A stretch of 64,000 nt of DNA. It comes from Candidatus Heimdallarchaeota archaeon (lineage in GTDB: Archaea; Asgardarchaeota; Heimdallarchaeia; Heimdallarchaeales; Heimdallarchaeaceae). Of the stretch, positions 282-29,697 are shown one piece after another (positions within the stretch are counted from its first letter, which is position 1; every line of letters begins with the position of its first letter). The stretch covers positions 1-64,000 of the forward strand of contig JABCTC010000010.1 in assembly GCA_018238545.1 (NCBI GenBank), written 5' to 3'. The translations under genes and the position numbers were made by a program. A model generated the notes under the pieces. The model was not told the origin of the DNA. It saw only the letters and a list, made by a program, of their open reading frames with translations, and did no database searches.

Positions 282-459
282 AGTTAATCACTTGTAAATT
301 TTATTATTGTTTATCGCTAAACAAACAATTGTGGATACTCTCTTAAACTTTACTTAATTTGTAAAAGAAGTGTTGGTTGTTAAATATTTCTCAATATATC
401 AGCTTAAAGTTTATATTGCATAGCATTGTTAATTTCTTACCATAGCTGGTTGTGTGCCC

Positions 460-3354
460 ATGCGAAAAAAAGCCAAGCAAACAGAATTTTTAACTCAAAA
501 ATACTTGTGTCCTCATCATCTTTCAGAAGATAAAATAAGTGGGGGACTCAATACTGATATCAGATTTGGTTTACATGATGATGAAGCAGTTAAACGATTA
601 AAACAATATGGTCCTAATGTAATTCCTAAAATCAAAGGATCAATTTGGGAGATATATCTAGCTCCATTGTTTAATTGGTTAATCAATATCTATCTGATTG
701 TTTCTTCTATTCTAATATTCATGGCAATATGGGTAGACGGCGTTATTGGGCAAATTGGCTTTTGGTTAATAATAATTGTTTTCAATATTGGTTTTACAAT
801 TTTTCAACAAATAAGAGCTCAATTCAAATTGGATGCATTACACAAGCTAGCTGCTCCGAGATCTACAGTAATACGAGATGGTGTCCCTAGACAAATAGTT
901 GCTGTAGATTTGGTACCTGGTGACTTAATTGAATTGGATCAAGGAGATAGGGTTCCTGCCGATGCAAGAATAATCTATTCAAGTAATTGTTTAGCAAATG
1001 AAAGCGCATTAACAGGAGAATCGGTAGCTGTTGAAAAGAATCACAAGCCCAAAAATACTCTTCAAGAAGATACTCCTATATCGCTTAGAGTTAATATGCT
1101 CTATACTGGTACATTTGTTGAAGTAGGTAGGGCAAATGCTATAGTAGTAAATACAGGCATTTATACAGAAATTGGAAAATTATCAACAGAATTACAAAAG
1201 ATAGGAACTACAGATATCCCGATTCGAGCTAAAGTAAACAGATTAGCTAAATGGTTGGGATTAACTGTTCTAGCTTATCTGGTGATTTCAATAATATACA
1301 AAACAATCTATTATTACACTATTGGAGGAGATATACCTCTACCAAATCAGATTGTAGATTCTATAACAACTTCAATGGCGATTATGCCTATTAGTATCCC
1401 TCTATTGACGACTTTGATATTACTTACTGGAGTATTATCGATGGCAAAAGACAGAGTGATAATTCGGAATCTTTCTGCGGTAGAGACATTAGGTAGAAGT
1501 TCTGTTCTATGCAGCGATAAAACAGGAACTATAACAACTAATATGATGACTATCCAAAGGATCTGGGATACAAGTCAATTTTATGGTGTGTCAGGAATAG
1601 GATACAGTAACAAAGGTGCTATAGTTCCTCTTGGTGATGAACCGGGAAATTTCTCGGAAGACATGTATATACCTGACACGATAAAACCTTTTGCAGAAGA
1701 TTCAAAATTAGAGTATTTGCTTGTTGGAGGTATGTTAAATAATAATGCTCATTTGATTGTAGAAGAAGTTTTCGAACCTCATCATCAAGTCTCTTGGAAA
1801 ACTACTGGAGATCCTACAGATGGGGCATTTTTAGCATTATTCAATAAATCAGGATTAAATGAGAAGGAAACTAAAAAACAATATGGATACATTATGGAAT
1901 ATAATTTTGATTCAACATTGAAACGAATGAGTAAAACCTATCAAGATAAGGAAGGGTACTCACTTTTTTGCAAAGGTGCAACAGAGACCATTTTACCTTT
2001 ATGTAATAGGATTGGTAGTCCATCAGATTACAAGGAATTAACAGTTGAAGATACTAGGAAAATAAATGATTATGTTAGTGAGTTTGCATCAAAAGGTTAC
2101 AGAGTAATTTCTTTAGCAATAAGACCAATGGATAAAGATACGCTGTTAAGTCATGATAGAGCAGAATCAGAACAAGAATTAATTTACAATGGTTTTGTTT
2201 GTATGTTAGATCCAGCTCGATATGGTGTTGGTGACGCAGTGAATGAGTGTTACAAAGCTGGTGTTACTACAATAATGATAACAGGCGATAGTCCACTGAC
2301 TGCAAAAGCAATTGCTAAAGATGTAGGGATAGTTCAAAAAGATGAACTAGCAATAGAAGGAAATGATATAGCAAAACTTTCAGACGAAGAATTCTTCAAC
2401 ACAAGAATATTTGCAAGAGTTTCCCCACAACATAAACAAGTGATCATAGCAAAATATCAAAGCAAAGGTAAAATCGTATCTATGACAGGTGATGGTGTAA
2501 ATGATTCCTTAGCCCTAACAATGGCTGATGTTGGAATTTGTATGGGAATTGCTGGTACTGAAACAGCGAAACAAGCTTCTGATGTTATCATAGCTGATGA
2601 TAGTTTTACCAGTACTGTTTTAGGTATCAGAGAGGGGAGGGGATTGTTTAACCGCATTAGAATTATGATTTTCTTTTACATTGCATTAAACATAGCTGAA
2701 GCAATTTTATATTTCTCTAGCTCTTTTATTCCTGATTTTGCACTTGTTACAAGTTTTCAGAGAGTTTATATTTTCTCCACTGCTCATTTAATCCCGCCCT
2801 TTGCCTTTATTTTTGATAGTATAACTCAGGAAATAATGGAATATCCTCCAAGAGATGATGAAGACATTTTCAACAGACGCTATATAGGCGCTCTTGTAGT
2901 ACTTGCACTTTCTCTAGCATTCGCAGCTGGATTGATCTACTTCTTAGCCTTTTTTGGTATTATACCTACAACAACTAACCCGTTGAATGAAGTTAGTCTA
3001 CTAGCAGATTTGCAACAAGCTAAAGCAAGAACTATGTTTATTTCAATAATCGTCATTTCAGAAAGTTTAGTTGTGTTAGTGCTACGTCGACTGAACAAAC
3101 CTGTTCATAGATCCATAAAAGAAGATTGGAGATGGGTAGTTATGTTACTTGTAATAATTGTGCCGATTCTACATATTTTCCTAATGTACTCTGGTTGGCT
3201 CCAAGACATTGTTCTCATATTCTTTGATGACCCTTATGTTTTTATGCCACTTGGATTTACGGATTGGTTGATTGTTATAGGTGCAATAGCTATTCCTCTT
3301 ACAGCAATAGAAATTTACAAATGGATTGTCAGAAGGAGGAATAAATACTTCTAG
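460..3354 (+). CDS. P-type cation-transporting ATPase, type II/III-like
   Basis: A complete P-type ion pump of about 964 residues in the membrane. Numbered from the upstream GTG at 454, it has a cation-ATPase N-terminal domain (GL..EAV.RLK.YGPN), the actuator motif TGES at 187-190, the phosphorylation site DKTGT at D355, and the hinge TGDGVND at 678-684. Two hydrophobic pairs precede the P domain and about six membrane helices follow it. I prefer the ATG at 460 over the GTG at 454; the two differ by two codons. The transmembrane-4 ion-site motif reads PISIP (312-316) rather than the PEGLP of Ca2+ pumps or the PV(A/M)(L/M)P of plasma-membrane H+ pumps, so the ion is not assignable. It appears to be a single-gene unit, followed by a T-rich tract. 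Confidence 0.9.
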   Translation: MRKKAKQTEFLTQKYLCPHHLSEDKISGGLNTDIRFGLHDDEAVKRLKQYGPNVIPKIKGSIWEIYLAPLFNWLINIYLIVSSILIFMAIWVDGVIGQIGFWLIIIVFNIGFTIFQQIRAQFKLDALHKLAAPRSTVIRDGVPRQIVAVDLVPGDLIELDQGDRVPADARIIYSSNCLANESALTGESVAVEKNHKPKNTLQEDTPISLRVNMLYTGTFVEVGRANAIVVNTGIYTEIGKLSTELQKIGTTDIPIRAKVNRLAKWLGLTVLAYLVISIIYKTIYYYTIGGDIPLPNQIVDSITTSMAIMPISIPLLTTLILLTGVLSMAKDRVIIRNLSAVETLGRSSVLCSDKTGTITTNMMTIQRIWDTSQFYGVSGIGYSNKGAIVPLGDEPGNFSEDMYIPDTIKPFAEDSKLEYLLVGGMLNNNAHLIVEEVFEPHHQVSWKTTGDPTDGAFLALFNKSGLNEKETKKQYGYIMEYNFDSTLKRMSKTYQDKEGYSLFCKGATETILPLCNRIGSPSDYKELTVEDTRKINDYVSEFASKGYRVISLAIRPMDKDTLLSHDRAESEQELIYNGFVCMLDPARYGVGDAVNECYKAGVTTIMITGDSPLTAKAIAKDVGIVQKDELAIEGNDIAKLSDEEFFNTRIFARVSPQHKQVIIAKYQSKGKIVSMTGDGVNDSLALTMADVGICMGIAGTETAKQASDVIIADDSFTSTVLGIREGRGLFNRIRIMIFFYIALNIAEAILYFSSSFIPDFALVTSFQRVYIFSTAHLIPPFAFIFDSITQEIMEYPPRDDEDIFNRRYIGALVVLALSLAFAAGLIYFLAFFGIIPTTTNPLNEVSLLADLQQAKARTMFISIIVISESLVVLVLRRLNKPVHRSIKEDWRWVVMLLVIIVPILHIFLMYSGWLQDIVLIFFDDPYVFMPLGFTDWLIVIGAIAIPLTAIEIYKWIVRRRNKYF

Positions 3355-3387: not shown

Positions 3388-3588
3388 CTCTAGTTCTAGA
3401 AAGACTAACTGAAAAAGATGAACAACCTTTGAATGAATTATAACATTATAGAATTTTCAGAAAAGTTGAAACTCTACAGTAAAAACATAGTTTCTTGCTC
3501 GTTTATGAGTTGCTCTTACAAATAGTTTTATAATCAAAAATCGATATATGTAGCTTTAGGGTTCAATCATTTCACAAGCTGATTGCTA

Positions 3589-4314
3589 ATGGATTCAAAT
3601 CACAAAAAGAAACTACTTATTTGCCGCGAAACCGACATTATTTGTACGGGTGGAGTAGTATTCATTGGTGATGGTGCAGTTGGAAAGACTCATACAGCTT
3701 TGAATTTGGCTAGTTATAAGAAAGGATCATTCCATACTGCTGATTGTGCTAACTTATCCAAATCCGTTAATTTGGAATTCGATTACTTCATTCTCTATTC
3801 AAATATTGAAAAATACAAAGTAACTATAAGTTCTCAATTATTCATAATGCCTGGACAGAAAGGGAGAGCTGAAGCTGGGGAAGGATTAGCTTTTGAAGAT
3901 GCGGTTGACATGTACTTCAACGTAAGAAGTATAAATGATGTAATAGCACTAATGTTAACCTATAATCTTGCTGATATTAGAACCTTTCAAAATTTAGAAT
4001 ATTGGTTAAACAGAGCAATTGATCACGAGTTGATCTCAGATTATACTAGCATAATATTACTTGGAACACATCTTGATCATGTTATTTCATCGGATGTTTC
4101 TGCCAATATGGTTGCAGATGGTGAAGTTTTTGTCAGACAAAGAATAGATGATAAACTTGGTATAGATATGGGTTCGGATAGAATAAGTTCAGTGGAGATT
4201 TCTAATTTACATAGAACGGGAATTGATGAACTACAAGATAGCGTGTCAAAAGCCTTCTTCAGGGCATTTGAGATAGAAAAAGTAGTATATGGGGTAATAA
4301 GTCAAGATAATTAG
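3589..4314 (+). CDS. Small GTPase, Ras/MglA-like, divergent G3 and G4
   Basis: A 241-residue cytosolic P-loop GTPase with a ~20-residue N-terminal extension. The Walker A/G1 motif GDGAVGKT lies at residues 27-34 from the ATG at 3589; a TTG two codons upstream is an alternative start. The expected DxxGQ (G3) reads IMPGQ, so the Mg2+/water-coordinating Asp is replaced while the switch-II Gly-Gln is kept. G4 is GTHLD, closer to the GTKLD of Rac-type GTPases than to NKxD. Loss of the G3 Asp suggests altered hydrolysis or effector control. It lies 139 bp upstream of the giant receptor-like gene on the same strand, which suggests a functional link but not proven co-transcription. No C-terminal CaaX box is present. 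Confidence 0.75.
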   Translation: MDSNHKKKLLICRETDIICTGGVVFIGDGAVGKTHTALNLASYKKGSFHTADCANLSKSVNLEFDYFILYSNIEKYKVTISSQLFIMPGQKGRAEAGEGLAFEDAVDMYFNVRSINDVIALMLTYNLADIRTFQNLEYWLNRAIDHELISDYTSIILLGTHLDHVISSDVSANMVADGEVFVRQRIDDKLGIDMGSDRISSVEISNLHRTGIDELQDSVSKAFFRAFEIEKVVYGVISQDN

Positions 4315-4453: not shown

Positions 4454-7400
4454 ATGTCTAAAAATATGTCAAAATTATTATCAATTTTTATAGTTACATT
4501 ATTCGTCAGTTCACTAATCTATTTTGAACCTTCATTAAATAACGAAAATATAACTGATTCAGTATTTCCTAATGAACCTATTCTTCCAGACAATGATAAT
4601 GAATCTGATGAAAATATAAATGACGAGGATGATAGTGGAACAACTCCTATAAAGAAGTTAGAAATTCCCGGAGACTACAAATCTTTCGCTTTTTTCAGTG
4701 GCGGCGGAACAGAACAAGGACTAGAACTAATCGCTGATCCAGAAGGGGAAGAGCAAATCTACTGGGGTGATTCAAGAGAAAATGTTATCGTATGGGAAAC
4801 ATATGATGATATCAAAGATGATGCTTATTTGGCTAAGGAACTATACTGGAGAGCACTAAGTACAGCATCTCATACTTGGCCTACTCAAGCAAATGTATGG
4901 TTTCATATGCACGAACAAAATTACCCTGATGAACCTTCAAAAATGTTCAGTCCAGTTTTCTCTGAAGATTGGTATATAAGTGGAAGAGTACATTATTTAA
5001 CTTATCTTGAAACGTCAACTTTTTCTGAATCAATAACAATAGGTGTAAGATTAAGTGTTCACCTTTTCAACCCAGCTGATCAAAGCACCTCCTTAATTAC
5101 ATCAACAACATTTACCGTTCCAATATCTTATGCTATGACTCAAAGGACCTTTTCTTCTGACATAGCTTCACCAGTATTAATTCCTGCTGGCTATAGGTTA
5201 AAGTATGACATTGAGTTAAGATTTAGCAGTATCCCTACTACTGGTTCTGTACTAATGTTCACTGGATATCCTGTTGGTGGAGGAGGATCGATGACTTGGA
5301 ATATAGTCGATGGGATTTATTCCAACAGTTATACTTTATTAAACAGAACTAGGATGTCAGGTGTTCAGTTGTACATGAGGAAAGATGTTTATCCCGATAT
5401 ACAGATTTTCAATGCTGTAAATGAGACAGTATATTCTTCAGCTAGAGATATAACAATTGATGTAACAGATGGTTCAACAAGTAGTTTTAGATGGAATGGG
5501 AATCCTGTCTGGACTCCATTTGACAATGATACTTTAACTTCATTGCCTTTAGTACATGGATGGAATACTTTAGAAGTGAAAGCAAGCGATCCAATTTACA
5601 ATAACACGATAGTAGAGCTTTATCAGTTTGGTTATGATGAATCTCCAGTTAATGTTGTTTTAGATAATGCTATAAATAACTCAGTTATAGCTGGTGATTA
5701 TGATCTCCAGTTCAGCGTCTATAATATAACCTCTGCAAAGTATAGGTGGGATGGTAGTGGCCCTCAAATAGATTTCAATTCACCTTATAATATTACGGCA
5801 GATAATTTTGAAGGCTTACATGATTTAAGAATCATTACAACTGATTTCTATACTGAGGAGTCATATTATTACAAGTTCACTTTTGATTCTACGGCACCTA
5901 CCATGATTTTACAATCACCAAGCAATAATACTTTACAAGCTCCAAGAAAATCAATTAATATAGATGTTAACGATTCATCAGGAGTTGACGTAGTTACTTA
6001 TCACTGGGATGCAGATGCGGAAGCACTGTTGAACCTTATTGGTGGTATTACCTATAGAACATTCTTACCCTCTGCAGGAGGGTGGCATGATCTGTATGTT
6101 ACTGCAAATGATACCCATGGAAATCAAGTAACTTCATATTATACTTTCTTTACAGATCCAACCATACTTAATGTAGAATTAAGATATATGATAGATGATT
6201 CATATTTTGTTGGTGGTAATGATGTCGAGGTTACAATAACTTCTTCAAATGATACAATAAAATATCAATGGGATAATGATGTTTTTTGGAAAGATAAACT
6301 TGACGCAGTTTGGGATGGTACATATCTTAAACTTACGAATGTAGAAGGATTGCCTTCAACTCTAGGTGTTCACATTTTAAAAATTCGAACAGGTGATCTT
6401 TCACATGTTGAACATATTTTTACTTTTAAATTCACAGTAGATCAGCAAGCACCAGAGTATGATATTTCTGTGTTCAATTATAGTAATTTAAGATATTTGG
6501 GGTCTGAAGCACTCACGTTTACTGTAACAGACAATTATACACTTTCAGCTGAAATCTTAATGGACATTTCAGTCGATGGAGGATTTAATCAATCTCTATT
6601 GTTTCCTTTCATGCTACCACTATTTTCATTCTTTGATGGTAACCATAGCATTGTGATATATGTTTGGGATGTTGCCGGTAATGTGAACGTGACAACAATA
6701 TATGTTATAGTTGATAACACAGCTCCATATATAGATTATCTTATCACAGAACTAGTCAATTATATTCATGTAGATGGCAATAGATATGTACCAGCAGATG
6801 CTCTAGTTGATGTCACACTAACAGATGCGGATTCAACTCTTTTCAGTTATTATTCAATCAATGGAACAGCATTTTTACCATTCATTTCCGATTTTAATCT
6901 AGGTTTTCTTGAAGGTTTTCTAGAAGTAACTGTAAGAGCAAATGATAGCTTAGGTAATCAATTTGATTTGCTTTTTAGTTTAATTCTTGATAATAGTCCT
7001 CCAACATTGAATCTCATCTTTCCATTTAACTATATTTCAGAAATAAATGACCTAACACCCTTGCAATTCAATACACAAGATCTTTCTGATAAAACAATCG
7101 ATTCAGTTGAATATGAATGGGATATCTTTCCAGGATTCACAGCAAATGCATATCCTGAAACAGATGGCGATTTCGAATTCAAACTGCTCTTATTTATACA
7201 AGATGCTTATGCACCAGGTAGTACTGCACAATTGACATTTTATCTTGAAGATATAGTTGGAAATATTGCTATAACTAAGTATAATTTTACTGTTGATAAA
7301 ACAAAACCAATTGATTCATTCTACATTTTTAATGAAACTATTCTAGACTATGAACACATTAGTCAGTTTTATTATGTACAAGGAAACACAGAAATTATTT

Positions 7401-9292
7401 ATGACAATACAGAAAATGATGATGTTCTTAAGCTGGAATATTATTGGGATGGAAACACATCAGAGGGAGCGGTTATAGTACTTCTGAATGGGACAAACCT
7501 ATTTCCGTGGTTCATAAATGTACCCACAATTGATGGAGAACACAATTTAACAATCAAGCTATATGATAATACAGGCGAAGATCAATATCCAAATATCAGA
7601 ACTGAAACTTATTTCTTAAAAGTCGATGATATAACGATTAACTATATTACACCCACTGATTTTTCAAACAACTACCATACAACAATCTTGTATGAGGAAA
7701 GTTTCAATTTTAGGATAAATGTTACAGATACTTTAGATGGGCAACCTCTTGATAATGTGAATATCTCTTATAACTACGATTCCACCTACAATCTCAGTTT
7801 TGAAATTGTCCAGATTGATAATATAACTTATGATTTTACAATAACGGCTTATAACGTAACAAATGGTTTAGAAACAGAAATTGAATTTTATATCTCTCAA
7901 TATGCTGACCATAAAGATATGATTGTTATACATCTTAGGGTTGATAAGAGAGAAGGGAATTTACTTGTCTTGCAAGGTGGTTATGATAGTCTTTACTATG
8001 ATAGTATAACCAATCTCACACTGCAATTGAATGATCATTTGAACATTTCTGCTCAAGAGATTCTAAGCATTACAGTAAATGGTACTGAAGTATCTTTTCT
8101 ATATTTTTCAGAAAATAAAACAGCAAGTATCTCTCTCTATATACCTGATTTTATTGATAAGCAAGGCAATTATACTTTCGAAATTTACGTAGAGTCCTCA
8201 GAATATTTTGATACAATGATTGATTCCTCTATTATTACTATAGATGTAAAACCAATGTTAGTTCTATTAGATGTATGGGTATTAAATTCAACAATTCTAG
8301 AAGGTAATCCTGTATCAATTATGGCAAATCTAACCTTAACGGATGGAACACCAGTAGCATTTGTGGAAATTTATTTTATAATTTATATCTACCTAAAAAC
8401 CAGTCCAGAACTTCCATCTACGGTTGTTCGACTATCTTTTGAGGATTCTGACTACAATGATACACAACATGCAGATACTGGATCTAATGGTTTGGCATTT
8501 TTATCTTATACTCTGAACTCCAACATTTCTTCAATCAAAATAGAAGCTGGATTTCTGGGTGATGACACACGGGATCAAACACAATTTACATTTGATGGCA
8601 TAGTGATTACATATCCACCTCCTGAAGCTGAAGAGCTCCCTGTCTGGCTATTAGCTTTAATAATAGGTGGAAGCATTTTAATTGCTGGAATCATCTCCTT
8701 CATTATTTACAAAGCTACACGACCTAAACCTTTCGAAGAATTAATGAAGAAAATAACTGATGAGGAAATAGTTCTAAATTATTCTATTCTCTCTCCTGGT
8801 ATTATGTTGTCAATATTTGATCAACGGAAAGGTCCGATTCCATTAGTAACTGATCATTCTTTGAGTGTTGGTCGATACTTGGGAAGAATGCAGATTGGAA
8901 TAGAAAATTTTCTACTTAAAATTGCAGATCAAGCTTATTCCAGCTTAGGTTTTGAGGAACATACCAATGAGAGGAGAGTTGGATCGATAGTACTACCTAG
9001 TGAGAAAATGATCGGATTTTTGCAAGGTATTCAACTAAAGAATCCTCAATCTCGAGGAGGTTTTGAGAATCTTTCTCTGATAGTTCTTGCTGATAGAGAA
9101 TATGGAAACCTACTTCTTAACTACCAAGAGTATCTTTATCCAAAAATAGATGAATTGGAAGTTGCACTCAAAGGTAAAGATACTCTGAAGAAAGTAGAAG
9201 AGTTGATGAAAGAAATCCGTAAGATATCTGTGATAATTGTCCTCGCTGCCCAAAAAGCTGAAAAAGCACAAGAAAACGGAAATAATTCATAA
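4454..9292 (+). CDS. Giant receptor-like membrane protein with cytosolic longin-like tail
   Basis: A 1612-residue type I membrane protein. It starts with a signal-like hydrophobic segment (about residues 7-24), then an acidic D/E/N-rich stretch and a ~1300-residue exterior region. That region holds repeated Ig/cadherin-like modules, with recurring boundaries such as D.TAP...... SPSNNT and internal YxWD motifs, and many N-x-S/T glycosylation sequons. A single membrane helix follows at about 1396-1420, then a ~190-residue cytosolic tail. The tail begins with SIFDQRKGPIPL (S1453) and looks like an alpha/beta longin or roadblock-type domain ending in a charged helix. Architecturally this is a sensor or adhesin with an intracellular output. 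It has a GAGG ribosome site 6 bases before ATG, follows a GTPase gene and precedes a Rag-like GTPase gene by 100 bp. The ligand is unknown. Confidence 0.8.
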   Translation: MSKNMSKLLSIFIVTLFVSSLIYFEPSLNNENITDSVFPNEPILPDNDNESDENINDEDDSGTTPIKKLEIPGDYKSFAFFSGGGTEQGLELIADPEGEEQIYWGDSRENVIVWETYDDIKDDAYLAKELYWRALSTASHTWPTQANVWFHMHEQNYPDEPSKMFSPVFSEDWYISGRVHYLTYLETSTFSESITIGVRLSVHLFNPADQSTSLITSTTFTVPISYAMTQRTFSSDIASPVLIPAGYRLKYDIELRFSSIPTTGSVLMFTGYPVGGGGSMTWNIVDGIYSNSYTLLNRTRMSGVQLYMRKDVYPDIQIFNAVNETVYSSARDITIDVTDGSTSSFRWNGNPVWTPFDNDTLTSLPLVHGWNTLEVKASDPIYNNTIVELYQFGYDESPVNVVLDNAINNSVIAGDYDLQFSVYNITSAKYRWDGSGPQIDFNSPYNITADNFEGLHDLRIITTDFYTEESYYYKFTFDSTAPTMILQSPSNNTLQAPRKSINIDVNDSSGVDVVTYHWDADAEALLNLIGGITYRTFLPSAGGWHDLYVTANDTHGNQVTSYYTFFTDPTILNVELRYMIDDSYFVGGNDVEVTITSSNDTIKYQWDNDVFWKDKLDAVWDGTYLKLTNVEGLPSTLGVHILKIRTGDLSHVEHIFTFKFTVDQQAPEYDISVFNYSNLRYLGSEALTFTVTDNYTLSAEILMDISVDGGFNQSLLFPFMLPLFSFFDGNHSIVIYVWDVAGNVNVTTIYVIVDNTAPYIDYLITELVNYIHVDGNRYVPADALVDVTLTDADSTLFSYYSINGTAFLPFISDFNLGFLEGFLEVTVRANDSLGNQFDLLFSLILDNSPPTLNLIFPFNYISEINDLTPLQFNTQDLSDKTIDSVEYEWDIFPGFTANAYPETDGDFEFKLLLFIQDAYAPGSTAQLTFYLEDIVGNIAITKYNFTVDKTKPIDSFYIFNETILDYEHISQFYYVQGNTEIIYDNTENDDVLKLEYYWDGNTSEGAVIVLLNGTNLFPWFINVPTIDGEHNLTIKLYDNTGEDQYPNIRTETYFLKVDDITINYITPTDFSNNYHTTILYEESFNFRINVTDTLDGQPLDNVNISYNYDSTYNLSFEIVQIDNITYDFTITAYNVTNGLETEIEFYISQYADHKDMIVIHLRVDKREGNLLVLQGGYDSLYYDSITNLTLQLNDHLNISAQEILSITVNGTEVSFLYFSENKTASISLYIPDFIDKQGNYTFEIYVESSEYFDTMIDSSIITIDVKPMLVLLDVWVLNSTILEGNPVSIMANLTLTDGTPVAFVEIYFIIYIYLKTSPELPSTVVRLSFEDSDYNDTQHADTGSNGLAFLSYTLNSNISSIKIEAGFLGDDTRDQTQFTFDGIVITYPPPEAEELPVWLLALIIGGSILIAGIISFIIYKATRPKPFEELMKKITDEEIVLNYSILSPGIMLSIFDQRKGPIPLVTDHSLSVGRYLGRMQIGIENFLLKIADQAYSSLGFEEHTNERRVGSIVLPSEKMIGFLQGIQLKNPQSRGGFENLSLIVLADREYGNLLLNYQEYLYPKIDELEVALKGKDTLKKVEELMKEIRKISVIIVLAAQKAEKAQENGNNS

Positions 9293-9392: not shown

Positions 9393-11123
9393 ATGTCATA
9401 CCTATTCGATGAAATATACGGCAAAAATGAAGAAGCTCCTGCTATCGAAGATAAGATTCTACTTATGGGTCTCCAAGCTGCAGGGAAAACCGCAATAAAA
9501 GACGTGGTTTTCTTCAATAAATCTCCAGAAGATATGGAAGATTACATGGCTACAGTACACTATCAACGTCATTTTATTGACGAAGAAAAATCAAGTATGG
9601 TTATTGATTCAGGTGGCCAAGAAAGTTATTGGAACGAAGCTGTAACACATTTTCGACATCTTGTATTTTCAAATGTCAAGTTACTTATGTGGATTGTTGA
9701 TGTCACTCATCCCGAGATGTTTGAAGAATCAGAAAGAAGATTCAGTTTTACAATACGACAATATAAAAAAGAAAACCCCAATGGAAAAATAACTGTATTG
9801 TGTCACAAAGTAGATCTTGTACCACCAGAGAGAATGGTAGTTATTCATCAACACATACGAGAATCATTTGATGATCCCCGTTTTGAAATAGATTATGAGA
9901 ATACAAGTATCTATTACGGAGAAAGTCTAAAGGAATTAGTTTTTACAATTATGGCTGAAGCTGGTATCGATACTAAACGATTTGAGTTAATTTCCAACTT
10001 AGGTCAGAAAGTGGAGGAAAGTGATGAGTTCCAAAGCTATCTTATGGAACATAAAGAAGATCCAAGAATTGAACAGCTTTTAGATTTTCTCAAACCTGAA
10101 GCTGATATTACATTACCCACATTTGGTAATTTAGATCTACAATTTGACTTAACAGAATATGGCATTGTAGAAATTGTTCTTATTGATAGGGACACATTTT
10201 CTCCTATAGTAGGTGCATCCTCTAAAACCGATGTTTCAACACAAAATTCAATGGATTATCTAATCGCTCTTCATGATTTCAAACGTTATGTTAAGGAGAA
10301 GAGTCAAGAGATTGAGCCCACGGGAACTATAGTTACATCATCAAATGAAAAAGTTCATGGAATGATTTTCAATCTTGCTAGTAATTTCTTACTTGTAACT
10401 TCTTTCTCTGAAATTACAGAAGAGAAAAAGAAAATGTTTTTTGAGCTTATACTCAAGTTTGCAAAATCAACTGCAGATTCAACTCAAGAAACTAAACCTG
10501 AACCAGCTCCTGTTGTTGTTCCAGAATCTGCACCAGTAACAGTTCCTTCAGTTCCTATTACTGAAGAAACAGTAACTGTTGATACTGAACCAATAGTTAT
10601 TGAAAAGACAGTGGAGGTTCCTCACATGGAGATAATAGAAACAGAGTTGGTTGTAGAAGAAGCTAATACTGTTGAACCAGAAATCATGTTACCACCCTCT
10701 CCATCTCCTGTTAAACTTGTTTCAGAGGAAACAGAAGGAGAGAAAGAACAAGTTAAATCAGAACCAATTGAAATAGAGCATATTGAAGAACCTGCTGAGA
10801 CACCAAAAATTCCTGTAGAATCAGAACCCACTATTGTCGAAGAAACTCTAGAAATTTTAACTGAGCCAACAACTCCATCAGTTCTAGAGTCCAATACTGT
10901 ATCAGATATTCTAGATTCAACTGAACCTGTAGCTACACTAAGTGGTATCGGAGATTCAAGTGCAATCAGTTTTTCAGCAGATGATATAAAGGACTTTGCT
11001 AATTTCTTAGTTAACAAGAAAGAAACAGTACTAGAAGAAATATCATTAGATGAGGTTAAAGGTATGTCTGACTTTCTGACAAAAGGATTAGTAGCTGAAG
11101 AAGATGATACAATTGAAGAATAA
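9393..11123 (+). CDS. Rag/Gtr-like GTPase with roadblock-like domain and long acidic linker
   Basis: A 576-residue cytosolic protein. The GTPase domain spans about residues 20-200, with G1 GLQAAGKT at 26-33, G3 DSGGQE at 72-77 and G4 HKVD at 138-141. HKxD in place of NKxD is a hallmark of eukaryotic Rag/Gtr GTPases. A roadblock/longin-like alpha/beta domain follows at about 245-355, the same domain order as RagA/RagC. Residues ~360-505 are a low-complexity E/P/V/T-rich linker, and the last ~40 residues form a predicted helical segment (ADDIKDFANFL). Rag proteins work as dimers through the C-terminal domain, and a second Rag-like gene lies convergently next door, so they may pair. The long disordered tail is unlike eukaryotic Rags. 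Confidence 0.85.
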   Translation: MSYLFDEIYGKNEEAPAIEDKILLMGLQAAGKTAIKDVVFFNKSPEDMEDYMATVHYQRHFIDEEKSSMVIDSGGQESYWNEAVTHFRHLVFSNVKLLMWIVDVTHPEMFEESERRFSFTIRQYKKENPNGKITVLCHKVDLVPPERMVVIHQHIRESFDDPRFEIDYENTSIYYGESLKELVFTIMAEAGIDTKRFELISNLGQKVEESDEFQSYLMEHKEDPRIEQLLDFLKPEADITLPTFGNLDLQFDLTEYGIVEIVLIDRDTFSPIVGASSKTDVSTQNSMDYLIALHDFKRYVKEKSQEIEPTGTIVTSSNEKVHGMIFNLASNFLLVTSFSEITEEKKKMFFELILKFAKSTADSTQETKPEPAPVVVPESAPVTVPSVPITEETVTVDTEPIVIEKTVEVPHMEIIETELVVEEANTVEPEIMLPPSPSPVKLVSEETEGEKEQVKSEPIEIEHIEEPAETPKIPVESEPTIVEETLEILTEPTTPSVLESNTVSDILDSTEPVATLSGIGDSSAISFSADDIKDFANFLVNKKETVLEEISLDEVKGMSDFLTKGLVAEEDDTIEE

Positions 11124-11211: not shown

Positions 11212-12441
11212 TTATACTGGTCGACTGTCACCATATCTTCTATATTCTAGTTGTGCATCTAGGAAGATTGGTATCTCTCGCATCTCTGTAACACATTCAT
11301 GAATAGGATAAATCTCAATAGATGTTGAACCAAATCCTTTCTGAACCTTAATCCCTCTTTCAAGTTGTTCAGAGTTTTCAACTGCCACATCAAGCATTGA
11401 TTTCTGCAGGTTTCTTCCACAAACATCGCACCTAAAACTAATTTTCTTGTCAACTCTTATTTCAACAACCTCGTCTTTAGGAATACTATTTTTTGCTAAA
11501 TAATTGATGAGAGTGTCTTTCATCTTGAGTTTAGCTCTTCCAAGAAGTTCGTCAGGTTGGAATAGTTGTTGCATCTCAACTGCTAAGGTATCGAAATATT
11601 CCTTTTCATTTACTATATCAGTTGCTGGAGGAAAAACGGTTGTTAATACTAAATCTTCATTTATTTCTTTCATATAGACTCTGTTTTCTTCAAAAGAAAA
11701 TATAACATGATCTAAAACTAAAGTTGGTGAAAACATTTTTGCAAGATCATTTTTCAATTTAATGAAATTATATCCAGCATACCTTTCAGGTTGAGAATAT
11801 AACATTAAACCTTGTGCTGTTGATAGCGCAATAAACACTAAATCTTGCTGTTGGAACTTTTCTTTAATTTTACTGGATTTACTGTCATCTTTTGGGTAAA
11901 CATAAGCTAATACTTGTTGCATTGCATCCCATATTGTATCTTCAAAAATTGATGTTCCAATGATTTCTGCGTTTGGGAAATCCTCAATTTCGAAAATCTC
12001 TTTAATTGATTGTAAAACCGATTCTCGTTTATTAGGTGGGACTACATCCATCTTATGTGCAAATACGTATATTCGTGCTTCTCCACTTATCTCTTTTGTA
12101 GATTTAACAGTAAGATCAAAATAGTATTTTGAACGCATGATATTTGATGCATCAGAGATATCAACAACAAAAATCAAAGCTTTTGCATCACTGAATGTTC
12201 TTTCTTTGTATTGATCAAAAACTTCGTTCAAGTAATTGCTCTGCCCGCCGACATCAAAAAGATTAATCGCACTACCTGCAAGATTAAACAATTTCCGGTT
12301 TATACGGACTGTGGCTGGGTTCATTGATGTTGCTTCGGGAGCAAATCCTTCAAAAACAACTTGGCGAATGGAGGTTTTCCCTGATTGAGATAAACCTAAA
12401 ACGACTATCTTCGATTCTAATTCACTAGTACCGCCGTACAT
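11212..12441 (-). CDS. Rag/Gtr-like GTPase with roadblock-like domain and C-terminal Zn-binding motif
   Basis: A 409-residue protein from the ATG at 12441; the reading frame extends upstream to 12510, but that stretch is lysine/valine-rich and falls before the conserved start. G1 is GLSQSGKT (16-23), G3 DVGGQ (63-67) and G4 HKMD (129-132), identical in form to eukaryotic Rag GTPases. A roadblock-like domain spans ~198-300. A C-terminal segment has C338-x2-C341 and H381-x-C383, a likely zinc site of about 45 residues. It converges on the other Rag-like gene with 88 bp between stops. Together they resemble a Rag-type heterodimer gene pair; dimerisation is inferred, not shown. Confidence 0.85.
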   Translation of the reverse strand: MYGGTSELESKIVVLGLSQSGKTSIRQVVFEGFAPEATSMNPATVRINRKLFNLAGSAINLFDVGGQSNYLNEVFDQYKERTFSDAKALIFVVDISDASNIMRSKYYFDLTVKSTKEISGEARIYVFAHKMDVVPPNKRESVLQSIKEIFEIEDFPNAEIIGTSIFEDTIWDAMQQVLAYVYPKDDSKSSKIKEKFQQQDLVFIALSTAQGLMLYSQPERYAGYNFIKLKNDLAKMFSPTLVLDHVIFSFEENRVYMKEINEDLVLTTVFPPATDIVNEKEYFDTLAVEMQQLFQPDELLGRAKLKMKDTLINYLAKNSIPKDEVVEIRVDKKISFRCDVCGRNLQKSMLDVAVENSEQLERGIKVQKGFGSTSIEIYPIHECVTEMREIPIFLDAQLEYRRYGDSRPV

Positions 12442-12851
12442 TATCCTCACAACTACAACGTTTTTTTTCTTATAAAAAATTAATGTTACTCCAAATAGTA
12501 TGTATTGCACTTCTTTATATACAATTTTTTCTAGATTAGAAAAATCAAACTATTATTCGAAATAAGAATTCGTGTTTATGATTCTTTAATTCTCAATGCA
12601 ATCTCATCCATTTGCCTTGTACTGGCATCTAGAACATTATTTTGGAGTTTGTATTAAGGAGATCTTATTAGAAGATATCTCTTCTTTCCGATTTATTTCT
12701 TTATTTCCCTAAGGACCTTCTTGTATCGGGCACCTTTTTAGTAGGTAACTAGCGTTGCATCATAATGAAACAGCGTATTTCAGAATAATCTTATTATTTT
12801 TTCAAATAACTTTATATTTCCATTTTTGATTGTACAATTTGAGTAGATTAC
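12442..12851. other. Intergenic region with divergent promoters
   Basis: About 410 bp without a convincing gene between two divergent genes. On the plus strand, TTTATATTT at 12811-12819 is a TATA-like box about 27 bases upstream of ~12841, fitting a short leader before the nitroreductase ATG at 12852. The minus-strand promoter for the Rag-like gene presumably lies near 12470-12520, where ATATAA/TATAAAAA-like sequence occurs. An imperfect inverted repeat around GAGATCTT and AAGATATCTC (12660-12682) is visible. No tRNA or other RNA gene was recognised. Confidence 0.4.
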
Positions 12852-26911: not shown

Positions 26912-27922
26912 ATGTCTTTCTATGAATTTCGAAAACGCATAATGGAAGAAAAAGCTAAACGAGAAAAACGAGGAAAAAAAACTCGGACAGAAGCAACATC
27001 TCAACAAGAATCAATTGTTGGAAGAAACAAATTTAGTGTAGCATTATTAGGGTTAGAAAGAGCTGGAAAAACATCGTTAGTTAAAAAATTATTAAAACAA
27101 GAAGATATTGTTGTTAGACCAACGTATGGTGTTAATCTAGAAAACTATCAATATCGAGATTTAAACTTTACTTGCTTTGATCTAGGAGGCCATCAGCCTT
27201 TCAGATTGAGCTTATGGAAAAAATTTATTGAGCGAGCCGATGCAGTAATTTACTTAGTAGATTCAGCTGATCATGTAAGATTTGATGAATCTAAGCAAAC
27301 TTTTTGGCATTATATTAATTTCGCAAAACAGAACGCTCCTGTATTATTCTTAGCGAACAAAAGTGATCTACCCAATTCAAAAGAATTATCTGAAATCAAT
27401 GAACATTTCGAACTAGATAAATTTTTAAGAAATCTCAGACCATTCAACATCAAAAAAGTTTCAGCTTTAACAGGTCAAGGAGTCTATGAAGCTTGGGATT
27501 GGATGGTGGACGTTCTATGCGGAGCAGCTCAGTGGAAGGTTAAGATAGGCGCTGCTGTTTTGACAGATATTTCAGGTAACATTATCTCTGAAGCTATTTT
27601 TGGTAACCCTAATGAGCAAGCTACTGTTGCAAACGATTTTAAGAAATTAAAAGAATTAACTAAAATGTTTGCAGTTGAAGCTAAGGAAAGTATTCAATCA
27701 ATAAAGCTAGAGAATTTATATAAAAAACACGTTAGTCATGTTAAACGTGGAGCGTATTGTCTTTCAGTAATGATCGACCCTATTGATCCTGTTACAAGAG
27801 CCCAACAGATTCAACTTCGAATTTTAGAAAATTTCAGTAGGAATCCTGCTGAAGTAAGTAAAGACTTAGGAGATGTCTTCGAAAGTAAGTTCCCACTTGA
27901 AGTAGAAGGAGGAAGACGGTAA
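26912..27922 (+). CDS. Sar1/Arf-like GTPase with C-terminal roadblock/longin-like domain
   Basis: A 336-residue protein. A basic, charged N-terminal helix (1-40) precedes the GTPase domain: G1 GLERAGKT (47-54), switch-I T71, G3 DLGGH (90-94), G4 NKSD (149-152) and a G5-like SALTGQG. DLGGH instead of DxGGQ is the Sar1 form. A second alpha/beta domain at about 205-325 (GAAVLTDISGNIISEAIFG) looks like a roadblock/longin fold fused to the GTPase. AGGTGA stands 7 bases before the ATG. It is first of a tight cassette: the next gene starts directly after its stop codon. A role in membrane-associated signalling or trafficking is inferred from the family. Confidence 0.85.
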   Translation: MSFYEFRKRIMEEKAKREKRGKKTRTEATSQQESIVGRNKFSVALLGLERAGKTSLVKKLLKQEDIVVRPTYGVNLENYQYRDLNFTCFDLGGHQPFRLSLWKKFIERADAVIYLVDSADHVRFDESKQTFWHYINFAKQNAPVLFLANKSDLPNSKELSEINEHFELDKFLRNLRPFNIKKVSALTGQGVYEAWDWMVDVLCGAAQWKVKIGAAVLTDISGNIISEAIFGNPNEQATVANDFKKLKELTKMFAVEAKESIQSIKLENLYKKHVSHVKRGAYCLSVMIDPIDPVTRAQQIQLRILENFSRNPAEVSKDLGDVFESKFPLEVEGGRR

Positions 27923-28912
27923 TTGAGTAATTATCTCTCGTTTATACGAGATAAGATGATGTCTGAGAAGAGTAGAAAAATCCCCCAAATTGTTATTCTT
28001 GGGCTAGAAGGTTCAGGAAAGTCAACCGTTCTTAATCGTCTTTTGTTTGGAACTATTGCTGAGGGACAACCTTCACAATCTACTTGTTTCGTTAATGTAA
28101 AATATGGTACGACCATTCTTTCAGTTATTGAAGCTAGTGAAGAAACAGCTCGTGAAAGTCCTTACTTCCAAGATATTCTTGGTGAGATAGATGGGGTTGT
28201 ATTCGTGATAAATTCTCAGTCACTTCGACATATAGAAGCCTCGTTTGAATATGTTTTTACCTTATTTGATAAAATCCCTCAAAAGACATCAATTCTTTTC
28301 CTTGCAAACAAAATAGACAAACCAGGTGCTGTTCCTTTTCCAGATTTACTTCAAGATCCAGCATTTCAAATAATTATGGACGATATCAATCGTTCTGTTT
28401 CAATTTATCCAATAAGTGCCAAAACCGGAGAGACTTTCTATACCGCTTTTGATTGGATTATTTCAAGAATGACAGGGAGGACACCTTTACGTGAAGATGT
28501 AACTCCAAAGAGAGTTATTATTCTTCAAGAAGGAGGAGTACCTGCATTTGATTATATCTTCGATGCTTCTGGCGAGGAGCATGATAGCACATTGCTTGGA
28601 GGATTGATTAGTGCATTAAATATAATGGCTACTACTATCTTTGAAAGCGAATCTGTGATGGATGTTGTAAAACTAGGCGCTATGAAGATGATTATACGAA
28701 AAGTAAGTGGATGGAGCATAGTATTATTCGTTGGTAGAGATGATAGTGAGTCTAAAGCACAATCTCTTGCCGAGGAGATTCTTCAAGCATTTATTGAAGA
28801 ACGGGATAGAGATCCGACTAAAGAAATGCCAAAACAAGTTAAATACGAAATTTTGCGCAAAATCCCTGAAATCGCGATTGCTTTAGATCAAGAACCAATA
28901 AAGGATGATTAA
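27923..28912 (+). CDS. Degenerate Arf-like GTPase with C-terminal roadblock/longin-like domain
   Basis: A 329-residue paralogue-like partner of the gene upstream. G1 GLEGSGKS (27-34) and G4 NKID (129-132) are intact and G5 is ISAKTG. The G3 DxxG motif is gone: the region reads VIEASEETARES at ~68-79, so it may bind GTP but probably does not switch or hydrolyse normally. The C-terminal domain (~195-305) includes GGLISALNIMATTIF, the same pattern as in the Arf-like protein at 49-50 kb. The start is a TTG with GGAGGA nine bases upstream, immediately after the previous stop; an ATG at 27956 is an alternative. A pseudo-GTPase partnering the active one is the likely arrangement. Confidence 0.8.
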   Translation: MSNYLSFIRDKMMSEKSRKIPQIVILGLEGSGKSTVLNRLLFGTIAEGQPSQSTCFVNVKYGTTILSVIEASEETARESPYFQDILGEIDGVVFVINSQSLRHIEASFEYVFTLFDKIPQKTSILFLANKIDKPGAVPFPDLLQDPAFQIIMDDINRSVSIYPISAKTGETFYTAFDWIISRMTGRTPLREDVTPKRVIILQEGGVPAFDYIFDASGEEHDSTLLGGLISALNIMATTIFESESVMDVVKLGAMKMIIRKVSGWSIVLFVGRDDSESKAQSLAEEILQAFIEERDRDPTKEMPKQVKYEILRKIPEIAIALDQEPIKDD

Positions 28913-28926
28913 AAGGAGAAAAATAA

Positions 28927-29697
28927 ATGATAAATCCAAATATTTCCAAAGAACCAACTTTGGTGTTCAGTATATTCAAAGATTATGGACCAGAAATATT
29001 ATTCAATAATTCTATATTAGATGAAAATACAGCTCTAACACTAGTTATGACAGGTATGACCCTTGTTGAAATGAACAAGCCTTCAATTGGCAGATTAGAT
29101 GGAAGTCAAAGACCAAAAATGCTTGGTCCCATACCTGTTCCAGATAATGAAACTTTGAAAGCTATAGCTATTCCGTTTGAAACTGAAATAACCTCATCTA
29201 CTGATGTGAGAATTGAGCAAGCAGGATACAGATTATGTGTCGCATATTTCTTATTTGAAGGCTCAGCTGTACGAGAAGTATTAGATAGTTATGGCCTAAT
29301 TATACCCTATTTCACATTAATTGCAAGAAGTCTTGGCACAGAAGCGAATATTAATCCTTCATCCATTAAACAGGTCTTCGTAAAAATGGTTGATATGTTC
29401 TCTGGAAAAATCCCCAGGATCTATGGTGTTAATCAAGATAATTCTCTGAAAGAAATGATAGGCAAAAGATTAGAATACGCAGATACATACCTTCTTTGTG
29501 ATTTGCACAAAAATGAGATGTACATACTTTTGTATAATCCTTCAATGGATGTGTGGAGAAGAAGAGAGATCTACAAAGTGGCGTCCGAGTTAAATTCTAA
29601 TATGTTCAAGAGTTCTATGAGAATAAAAACAGTTGAAGATGTTAAGGAAATGGTGAGGATTTTAGACATTCTTAACATAGAAATATCTCCCGTATAA
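28927..29697 (+). CDS. Longin-like partner protein of the GTPase cassette, function unknown
   Basis: A 256-residue cytosolic protein with no membrane segment. It starts with PTLVFSIFKDYGPEILFNNS, followed by alternating strands and helices that suggest a longin/roadblock-like N-terminal domain (1-130) and a second alpha/beta half. The N-terminal part resembles the cytosolic tail of the receptor-like protein at 4.5-9.3 kb (both have SIF, then GP, then a small-residue/SL stretch). A clear AAAGGAG ribosome site lies just before the ATG, 14 bp after the previous stop. It is the third gene of the GTPase cassette, so a regulator or effector role is inferred from position. Confidence 0.6.
   Translation: MINPNISKEPTLVFSIFKDYGPEILFNNSILDENTALTLVMTGMTLVEMNKPSIGRLDGSQRPKMLGPIPVPDNETLKAIAIPFETEITSSTDVRIEQAGYRLCVAYFLFEGSAVREVLDSYGLIIPYFTLIARSLGTEANINPSSIKQVFVKMVDMFSGKIPRIYGVNQDNSLKEMIGKRLEYADTYLLCDLHKNEMYILLYNPSMDVWRRREIYKVASELNSNMFKSSMRIKTVEDVKEMVRILDILNIEISPV

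What the first reader, a model, noticed from the sequence alone, without database searches (positions are those of the whole stretch)
4454..9292. Receptor-like protein with a cytosolic longin/roadblock-like tail next to GTPase genes
A 1.6-kilo-residue exterior region of Ig-like modules, one membrane helix and a ~190-residue cytosolic tail give a receptor layout rare in archaea. The tail shares a SIF-x3-GP-x2-L opening with the third protein of the GTPase cassette at 28.9 kb, and a GTPase gene lies on each side. This could be a surface-to-GTPase switch.
Basis: partly seen in the sequence, partly recalled or inferred. Interest (0 to 1): 0.75.

Follow-up and report, generated by a model that had tools for sequence, protein, structure and literature searches.

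The report
Archaeal receptor with folliculin-like GTPase-regulator tail
A Heimdall archaeon encodes a large cell-surface protein whose inner end has the same fold and the same key arginine as the human tumour suppressor folliculin, and its gene sits beside the two best Rag GTPase genes of that genome, suggesting that surface sensing was wired directly to Rag switches before eukaryotes arose.

Summary
ORF 4454-9292 encodes a signal-like start, a ~1,370-residue exterior (N-terminal jelly-roll-like domain plus Ig-like stalk), one membrane helix (~1395-1421) and a 190-residue cytosolic tail. The tail is a longin domain (AlphaFold pLDDT 92); its nearest solved eukaryotic structure is FLCN, followed by Lst4, GATOR1 and C9orf72/SMCR8. 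The domain family, searched against all PDB sequences, returns folliculin first, and its invariant arginine (R1534 here, kept in 61/61 tails) aligns with the arginine fingers FLCN R164 and SMCR8 R147. Downstream lie two Gtr1/RagA-type GTPases, the two best Rag matches of the 3.63-Mb genome. Receptor plus downstream Rag is conserved in 19 of 20 testable named loci, and both genes are present or absent together in 32/32 genomes of two families. Elsewhere in Asgard archaea the same longin is fused to a Rag GTPase. The 28.9-kb protein is a related but distinct longin with a gelsolin-like end; its family sits next to receptor and Rag pair in four genomes of another family. Best reading: a surface receptor that regulates a Rag switch, probably as a GAP. 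Activity, ligand and sign of the response are untested.

The parts
4454..9292 (+). receptor ORF, 1612 aa, single-pass membrane protein with C-terminal longin tail
4454..4528 (+). signal-peptide-like N-terminus (residues 1-25)
   Evidence: hydropathy
4643..5407 (+). N-terminal ectodomain (residues 64-318), all-beta jelly-roll-like domain
   Evidence: AF2 pLDDT 86; Foldseek CocE/X-Pro dipeptidyl peptidase family, E 1e-8 to 1e-6
5408..8623 (+). Ig-like stalk (residues ~319-1390)
   Evidence: Pfam Big_13 at the cut-off; repeat count not resolved
8636..8716 (+). membrane helix (residues ~1395-1421)
   Evidence: hydropathy maximum 2.68
8720..9289 (+). cytosolic folliculin-type longin tail (residues 1423-1612)
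   Evidence: AF2 pLDDT 92, b-b-a-b-b-b-a-a order; Foldseek FLCN/Lst4/GATOR1/C9orf72; Pfam Folliculin in 16/27 homologues
9053..9055 (+). codon of R1534, candidate arginine finger in the b4-b5 loop
   Evidence: invariant in 61/61 distinct tails; aligns with FLCN R164 and SMCR8 R147; codon checked
9393..11123 (+). Rag GTPase A (576 aa; Gtr1/RagA G domain), 100 bp downstream of the receptor
   Evidence: PF04670 1.6e-25; PDB GTR1 3e-16, RagA 9e-15
11212..12510 (-). Rag GTPase B (432 aa), convergent; strongest PF04670 match of the genome
   Evidence: PDB GTR1 4e-28
3583..4314 (+). small Ras-like GTPase (243 aa), upstream gene conserved with the receptor
   Evidence: PF00071 8e-6; upstream on the same strand in 14 of 17 testable cases
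28927..29697 (+). 28.9-kb protein (256 aa): distinct longin family plus gelsolin-like C-terminal domain
   Evidence: hhalign to the tail E 2.5e-5; PDB 7c2f gelsolin-like E 0.002; family adjacent to receptor and Rag pair in L055, L066, L212, L214

Best explanation
A modular single-pass cell-surface receptor of Heimdall archaea. A jelly-roll or lectin-like tip on a long stalk contacts something outside. The state of the ectodomain is passed through one membrane helix to a folliculin-type longin domain inside. That longin domain docks on one or both Rag-family GTPases encoded next door and controls their nucleotide state, most likely as a GAP that inserts R1534 into the active site as FLCN R164 and SMCR8 R147 do. 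The 28.9-kb-type longin may be the second longin of a FLCN:FNIP-like pair. Shown: architecture, longin fold, folliculin-type similarity, invariant arginine at the finger position, conserved linkage and co-occurrence with a Rag GTPase. Inferred: physical binding to these Rags, GAP rather than GEF action, ligand dependence, and the second-longin role.
For: Fold: AF2 pLDDT 92 with longin strand order; Foldseek of 350,542 PDB chains gives an archaeal longin, then FLCN, Lst4, GATOR1, SEA and C9orf72/SMCR8 chains. Sequence: PF11704 Folliculin hit by 16/27 tails (best 5.9e-4), a prediction written down beforehand; over the cut-off in 19/57 Heimdall relatives, 0/14 controls; family profile vs all PDB sequences: FLCN first, E 0.0014. 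Arginine: aligns with FLCN R164 and SMCR8 R147; catalytic roles from PMC8107286 and PMC8213707; fingers in DENN-type GAPs lie between b4 and b5 of the longin (PMC12803157), as here. Rag link: the two best of 19 PF04670 hits in the genome are the two genes downstream; receptor followed by Rag 39-110 bp away in 19/20 testable named loci; joint presence or absence in 32/32 genomes of two families; longin-Rag single-protein fusions in other Asgard lineages; receptor + two Rags + longin cluster in four genomes of another family. Receptor nature: the tail is the most conserved part while tips differ (jelly roll, laminin-G, GH16-like).
Against: No biochemical data and no complex model (no multimer prediction available). 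The window tail alone has no Pfam hit; the folliculin signal needs relatives. Foldseek TM-scores to FLCN are modest (0.47 by query). Eukaryotic longin GAPs other than the Avl9 type act as heterodimers, and the second subunit here is uncertain: in the window's genus the candidate lies ~20 kb away. Several paralogous receptors (tails ~45-52% identical) lack the Rag neighbour. C-terminal dimerisation domains of the two Rags were not recognised by sequence. Ligand unknown. Joint absence could partly reflect linked genes missing from incomplete genomes.
Confidence: 0.6

Rival explanations
1. The tail is a non-catalytic platform or an exchange factor: like Ragulator, TRAPP or Mon1-Ccz1 it recruits or loads the Rags at the membrane, and the arginine is structural.
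For: Longin/roadblock pairs act mainly as GEFs and scaffolds (PMC10933270); the nearest solved structure is an archaeal longin (8yqg) that, in the alignment shown, lacks the RGG motif.
Against: The closest eukaryotic structures are GAP complexes; R1534 is at the arginine-finger position and invariant, also in the longin-Rag fusions inspected.
Confidence: 0.25
2. Inside-out control: the protein is an adhesin or surface scaffold, and active Rag binds the longin tail to position, cluster or release it, as with integrin-type regulation.
For: Long Ig-like stalk, lectin-like or GH16-like tips in relatives, tandem receptor copies; archaeal surface proteins are often adhesins (general knowledge).
Against: The tail is better conserved than the ectodomain, and conservation of a finger arginine suggests action on the GTPase rather than only by it.
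Confidence: 0.12
3. The tail works with another GTPase (the 243-aa Ras-like neighbour or an Arf-like protein), and the Rag linkage is incidental.
For: The Ras-like gene is conserved upstream; SMCR8- and Avl9-type longin GAPs act on Arf (PMC8213707, PMC12803157); longin-Ras fusions also occur (L061, L207).
Against: The top two Rags of the genome adjoin the receptor, longin-Rag fusions are commoner in the sample inspected, and the Rag link persists in a second family without the Ras-like gene.
Confidence: 0.1

Closest known systems
Folliculin (FLCN) of the FLCN:FNIP complex, RagC GAP
   Same: Longin fold, ARG motif with catalytic-position arginine, Rag GTPases as (likely) targets
   Different: FLCN is soluble, has a DENN part and works with FNIP on lysosomes; here the longin is the cytosolic end of a single-pass surface protein without DENN
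SMCR8 of C9orf72:SMCR8:WDR41 (ARF GAP)
   Same: Arginine finger (R147) aligns with R1534
   Different: Soluble complex, Arf target, DENN domains
GATOR1 (NPRL2/NPRL3) and the asCOG 'NPRL2-like longin' of Asgard archaea
   Same: Longin class found by Foldseek; NPRL2-like longins and Gtr1/RagA are already listed Asgard signature proteins (PMC9834061)
   Different: No membrane receptor is described; Pfam prefers Folliculin for these domains
Asgard longin-GTPase fusions and Rag-like GTPases (Tran et al. 2024, PMC10933270)
   Same: Longin joined to Rag-like GTPase in one protein
   Different: That study found GTPase genes generally not in operons with longin genes in MK-D1 and, in the passages read, described no membrane-receptor form; here they are linked and the longin is on a receptor
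Lokiarchaeal longin structure 8yqg
   Same: Closest solved fold (E 6.7e-6)
   Different: Part of a roadblock-longin protein; lacks the RGG arginine motif in the alignment shown

Membership tests
Longin domain | b1-b2-a1-b3-b4-b5-a2-a3 fold | tested here: met
   AF2 model pLDDT 92; longin structures are the top Foldseek hits
Folliculin longin (PF11704) | score above Pfam's gathering cut-off | tested here: inconclusive
   No Pfam hit for the window tail alone; 16/27 receptor tails match, best E 5.9e-4; soluble and fused Asgard relatives exceed the cut-off
Folliculin / longin-domain GAPs | arginine finger in the loop between b4 and b5 | tested here: met
   R112 of the tail (R1534) lies between b4 97-107 and b5 115-125 and aligns with FLCN R164 and SMCR8 R147
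Folliculin / longin-domain GAPs | DENN domain after the longin | tested here: not met
   The tail ends after the longin a3 helix; nothing follows. Hence not filed as a folliculin orthologue
Folliculin / longin-domain GAPs | heterodimer with a second longin subunit | not testable with these tools
   Candidate partner family adjacent in four genomes; no complex prediction available
Folliculin / longin-domain GAPs | stimulates GTP hydrolysis of Rag or Arf GTPases | not testable with these tools
   needs an assay
Rag/Gtr GTPases (9393-11123 and 11212-12510) | Gtr1/RagA G domain | tested here: met
   PF04670 1.6e-25 and 1.1e-32; PDB best hits GTR1 and RagA
Rag/Gtr GTPases (9393-11123 and 11212-12510) | C-terminal roadblock dimerisation domain | tested here: inconclusive
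   C-terminal regions give no meaningful PDB hit and do not match each other

The most novel reading that the evidence does not exclude
A transmembrane longin-GAP receptor: extracellular ligand binding directly switches a Rag GTPase pair through a folliculin-type arginine finger. The eukaryotic Rag-folliculin nutrient checkpoint on lysosomes would then descend from, or be cousin to, a cell-surface sensing system of Heimdall archaea.
Probability: 0.35. Interest if true: 0.95.

Novelty: new variant of a known kind. Interest (0 to 1): 0.82.

Why it matters
Rag GTPases and their longin GAPs (FLCN, GATOR1) are the core of eukaryotic nutrient sensing, and Asgard archaea have the GTPases but, as far as I found, no known upstream input. 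A receptor whose cytosolic end is a folliculin-type longin beside the genome's best two Rag genes gives a concrete, testable input and a candidate pre-eukaryotic form of the pathway.

Tried and rejected
Chance motif for the shared SIF-x3-GP opening: rejected by profile alignment. Disordered tail: rejected. Direct PDB sequence search with the single tail or with A1 found nothing meaningful; the wider family A5 was needed. AF2 of the 28.9-kb protein was not run: only two jobs, and its relatives came from a tool not named among the allowed sources; profile methods were used instead. Roadblock nature of the Rag C-termini could not be shown. Literature searches for a folliculin-like receptor or DENN domain in Asgard archaea found nothing. 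The folliculin idea first came from remembered FLCN sequence motifs; only the tool alignments are used as evidence.

Full report
WHAT IS THERE. The window is contig C109 of a 3.63-Mb assembly; its nearest named relatives are 'Candidatus Heimdallarchaeota' genomes. ORF 4454-9292 encodes 1612 residues: a signal-like start, residues 64-318 forming an all-beta domain (AF2 pLDDT 86) whose solved neighbours are CocE-type and X-Pro dipeptidyl peptidase-type hydrolases (from general knowledge, their non-catalytic jelly-roll part) and, further down, TNF-like jelly rolls, an Ig-like stalk (one Pfam domain just over the cut-off), one membrane helix at ~1395-1421 and a 190-residue tail. The tail is the best conserved part of the protein (majority-residue frequency 0.6-0.8 against 0.3-0.6 outside).

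THE TAIL IS A FOLLICULIN-TYPE LONGIN. From the alignment of tails down to ~20% identity I wrote down, before testing, that the strand order and the GP and ARG motifs recalled folliculin (the motifs came from memory and served only as a lead). Four tests followed. (i) Pfam: 16 of 27 tails hit PF11704 Folliculin, best E 5.9e-4; soluble and fused Asgard relatives exceed the curated cut-off, with none in 14 control genomes. (ii) AF2 with 41 sequences: pLDDT 92.1, pTM 0.89, b1 27-34, b2 38-46, a1 61-76, b3 87-92, b4 97-107, b5 115-125, then a2 and a3, the longin order. (iii) Foldseek against 350,542 PDB chains: a Lokiarchaeal longin first, then the active FLCN GAP complex (E 5.1e-4), FLCN-FNIP2-Rag-Ragulator, Lst4, GATOR1, SEA and C9orf72:SMCR8. 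(iv) A profile of 16 Asgard domains against 177,635 distinct PDB sequences: folliculin first (E 0.0014), SMCR8 also listed (E 0.27, not significant alone).

THE ARGININE. In those alignments the invariant arginine of the family falls on FLCN residue 164 and SMCR8 residue 147 (residue numbers counted from the printed alignments, chain numbering). FLCN Arg164 is described as the catalytic finger (PMC8107286) and SMCR8 Arg147 was seen in the ARF1 active site (PMC8213707). A 2026 preprint places DENN-type GAP fingers between b4 and b5 of the longin (PMC12803157), where tail residue 112 (R1534, codon 9053-9055) lies. It is kept in 61 of 61 distinct receptor tails (60 with RGGxxN, one with RAGxxN). 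The two hits share one query profile, so they are not fully independent tests of the register.

THE RAG LINK. The gene 100 bp downstream (9393-11123) and the convergent one after it (11212-12510) are Gtr1/RagA-type GTPases. In the whole genome PF04670 has 19 matches; these two are the best (92 and 115 bits; third best 69.5). With 3 strong matches placed at random, two or more within a 13-kb stretch has a Poisson probability of ~6e-5, a rough figure since genes are not placed at random. Among named loci with enough downstream sequence, the receptor (or last of tandem receptors) is followed by the Rag homologue at 39-110 bp in 19 of 20 (the exception, L070, has its receptor split into two ORFs). 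In the 32 genomes of the window's family (f1) and of f6, receptor and Rag are both present in 25 and both absent in 7, none discordant (tables; 1/C(32,7) is about 3e-7, but relatedness and linked loss in incomplete assemblies inflate this; the single-contig 3.3-Mb genome G022 lacks both, and in G021 they lie on different contigs). In family f5 four genomes have receptor, two Rags and a 28.9-kb-type longin side by side (L055, L066, L212, L214). In other Asgard families the same longin is the N-terminal part of ~455-505-residue longin-Rag proteins; Pfam finds Rag and Folliculin in the same ORF (L054, L195; weaker in L204, L205).

THE 28.9-kb PROTEIN. It belongs to a broad family (found in 53 of 57 relatives). 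Its profile aligns to the tail profile over 141 columns (E 2.5e-5, prob 75, 16% identity): same fold class, distinct family. Its C-terminal part resembles an archaeal gelsolin-like domain (7c2f, E 0.002).

RECEPTOR CHARACTER. Every one of 81 ORFs with a strong tail match has a membrane helix directly before it (some genes were fetched twice, 61 distinct tails). The same tail sits on different ectodomains: jelly roll plus stalk here, three laminin-G matches in L066, a GH16-type domain in L051. One conserved inside with varied outsides is what a receptor family would show.

MECHANISM, STEP BY STEP. Shown: architecture, longin fold, folliculin-type similarity, finger-position arginine, linkage and co-occurrence with Rag. 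Inferred: the tail binds these Rags; it acts as a GAP; ligand binding changes that action; the 28.9-kb-type longin is a second subunit. A GEF or platform role is the main rival.

LIMITS. The window tail alone is invisible to Pfam and PDB sequence search. The DENN part of folliculin is absent, so this is not a folliculin orthologue. Rag C-terminal roadblock domains could not be confirmed. No complex could be modelled. Paralogous receptors (45-52% tails) lack the Rag gene; five of thirteen such loci have a small Rag-like GTPase nearby instead.

PRIOR KNOWLEDGE. NPRL2-like longins and Gtr1/RagA are listed Asgard signature proteins (PMC9834061); longin-GTPase fusions were described in MK-D1, with the remark that GTPases there are generally not in operons with longins (PMC10933270). 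I found no description of a membrane receptor with such a tail in the open-access library, which omits most subscription papers.

Noticed in passing
L195-L207, L054, L061: Single proteins joining a folliculin-type longin (ARG motif) to a Rag GTPase, or in L061 and L207 to a Ras-type GTPase, in several Asgard families.
   Followed up: partly
L145, L146, L148, L156 (family f6); L152, L154, L157, L160 (f5): Soluble ~410-445 aa proteins with a Folliculin Pfam match over the cut-off and a long second half that may be DENN-like; possible fuller folliculin/SMCR8 relatives in archaea. L153 (379 aa) also has a weak C9orf72-like match.
   Followed up: partly
window 28927-29697: Longin fused to a gelsolin-like C-terminal domain, directly after two Arf-like GTPase genes (26912-28912); a possible link between GTPases and actin control.
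   Followed up: partly
L211:1128-2381 (own genome, C119): 417-aa protein with a folliculin-like longin motif (ARGG) and a V4R-like domain.
   Followed up: no
L035, L038, L039, L048, L049, L050, L064: Two or three receptor genes in tandem; in f5 arrays the last member (960-1060 aa) has a strongly diverged tail.
   Followed up: no
L070/L063 (G021) and L104 (G041): Receptor genes broken by stops or frameshifts (603 + 981 aa ORFs in G021); Rag orthologue still present in both genomes.
   Followed up: no
L051, L066: Ectodomains with a GH16-type domain (L051) and laminin-G / DUF2341 domains (L066) on the same tail.
   Followed up: partly
L196, L201: A transglutaminase-like membrane protein (judged by eye) is encoded convergently after the longin-Rag fusion gene.
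   Followed up: no
window 454-3354: P-type cation ATPase upstream of the cassette, also kept there in some relatives (L037, L039, L090).
   Followed up: no
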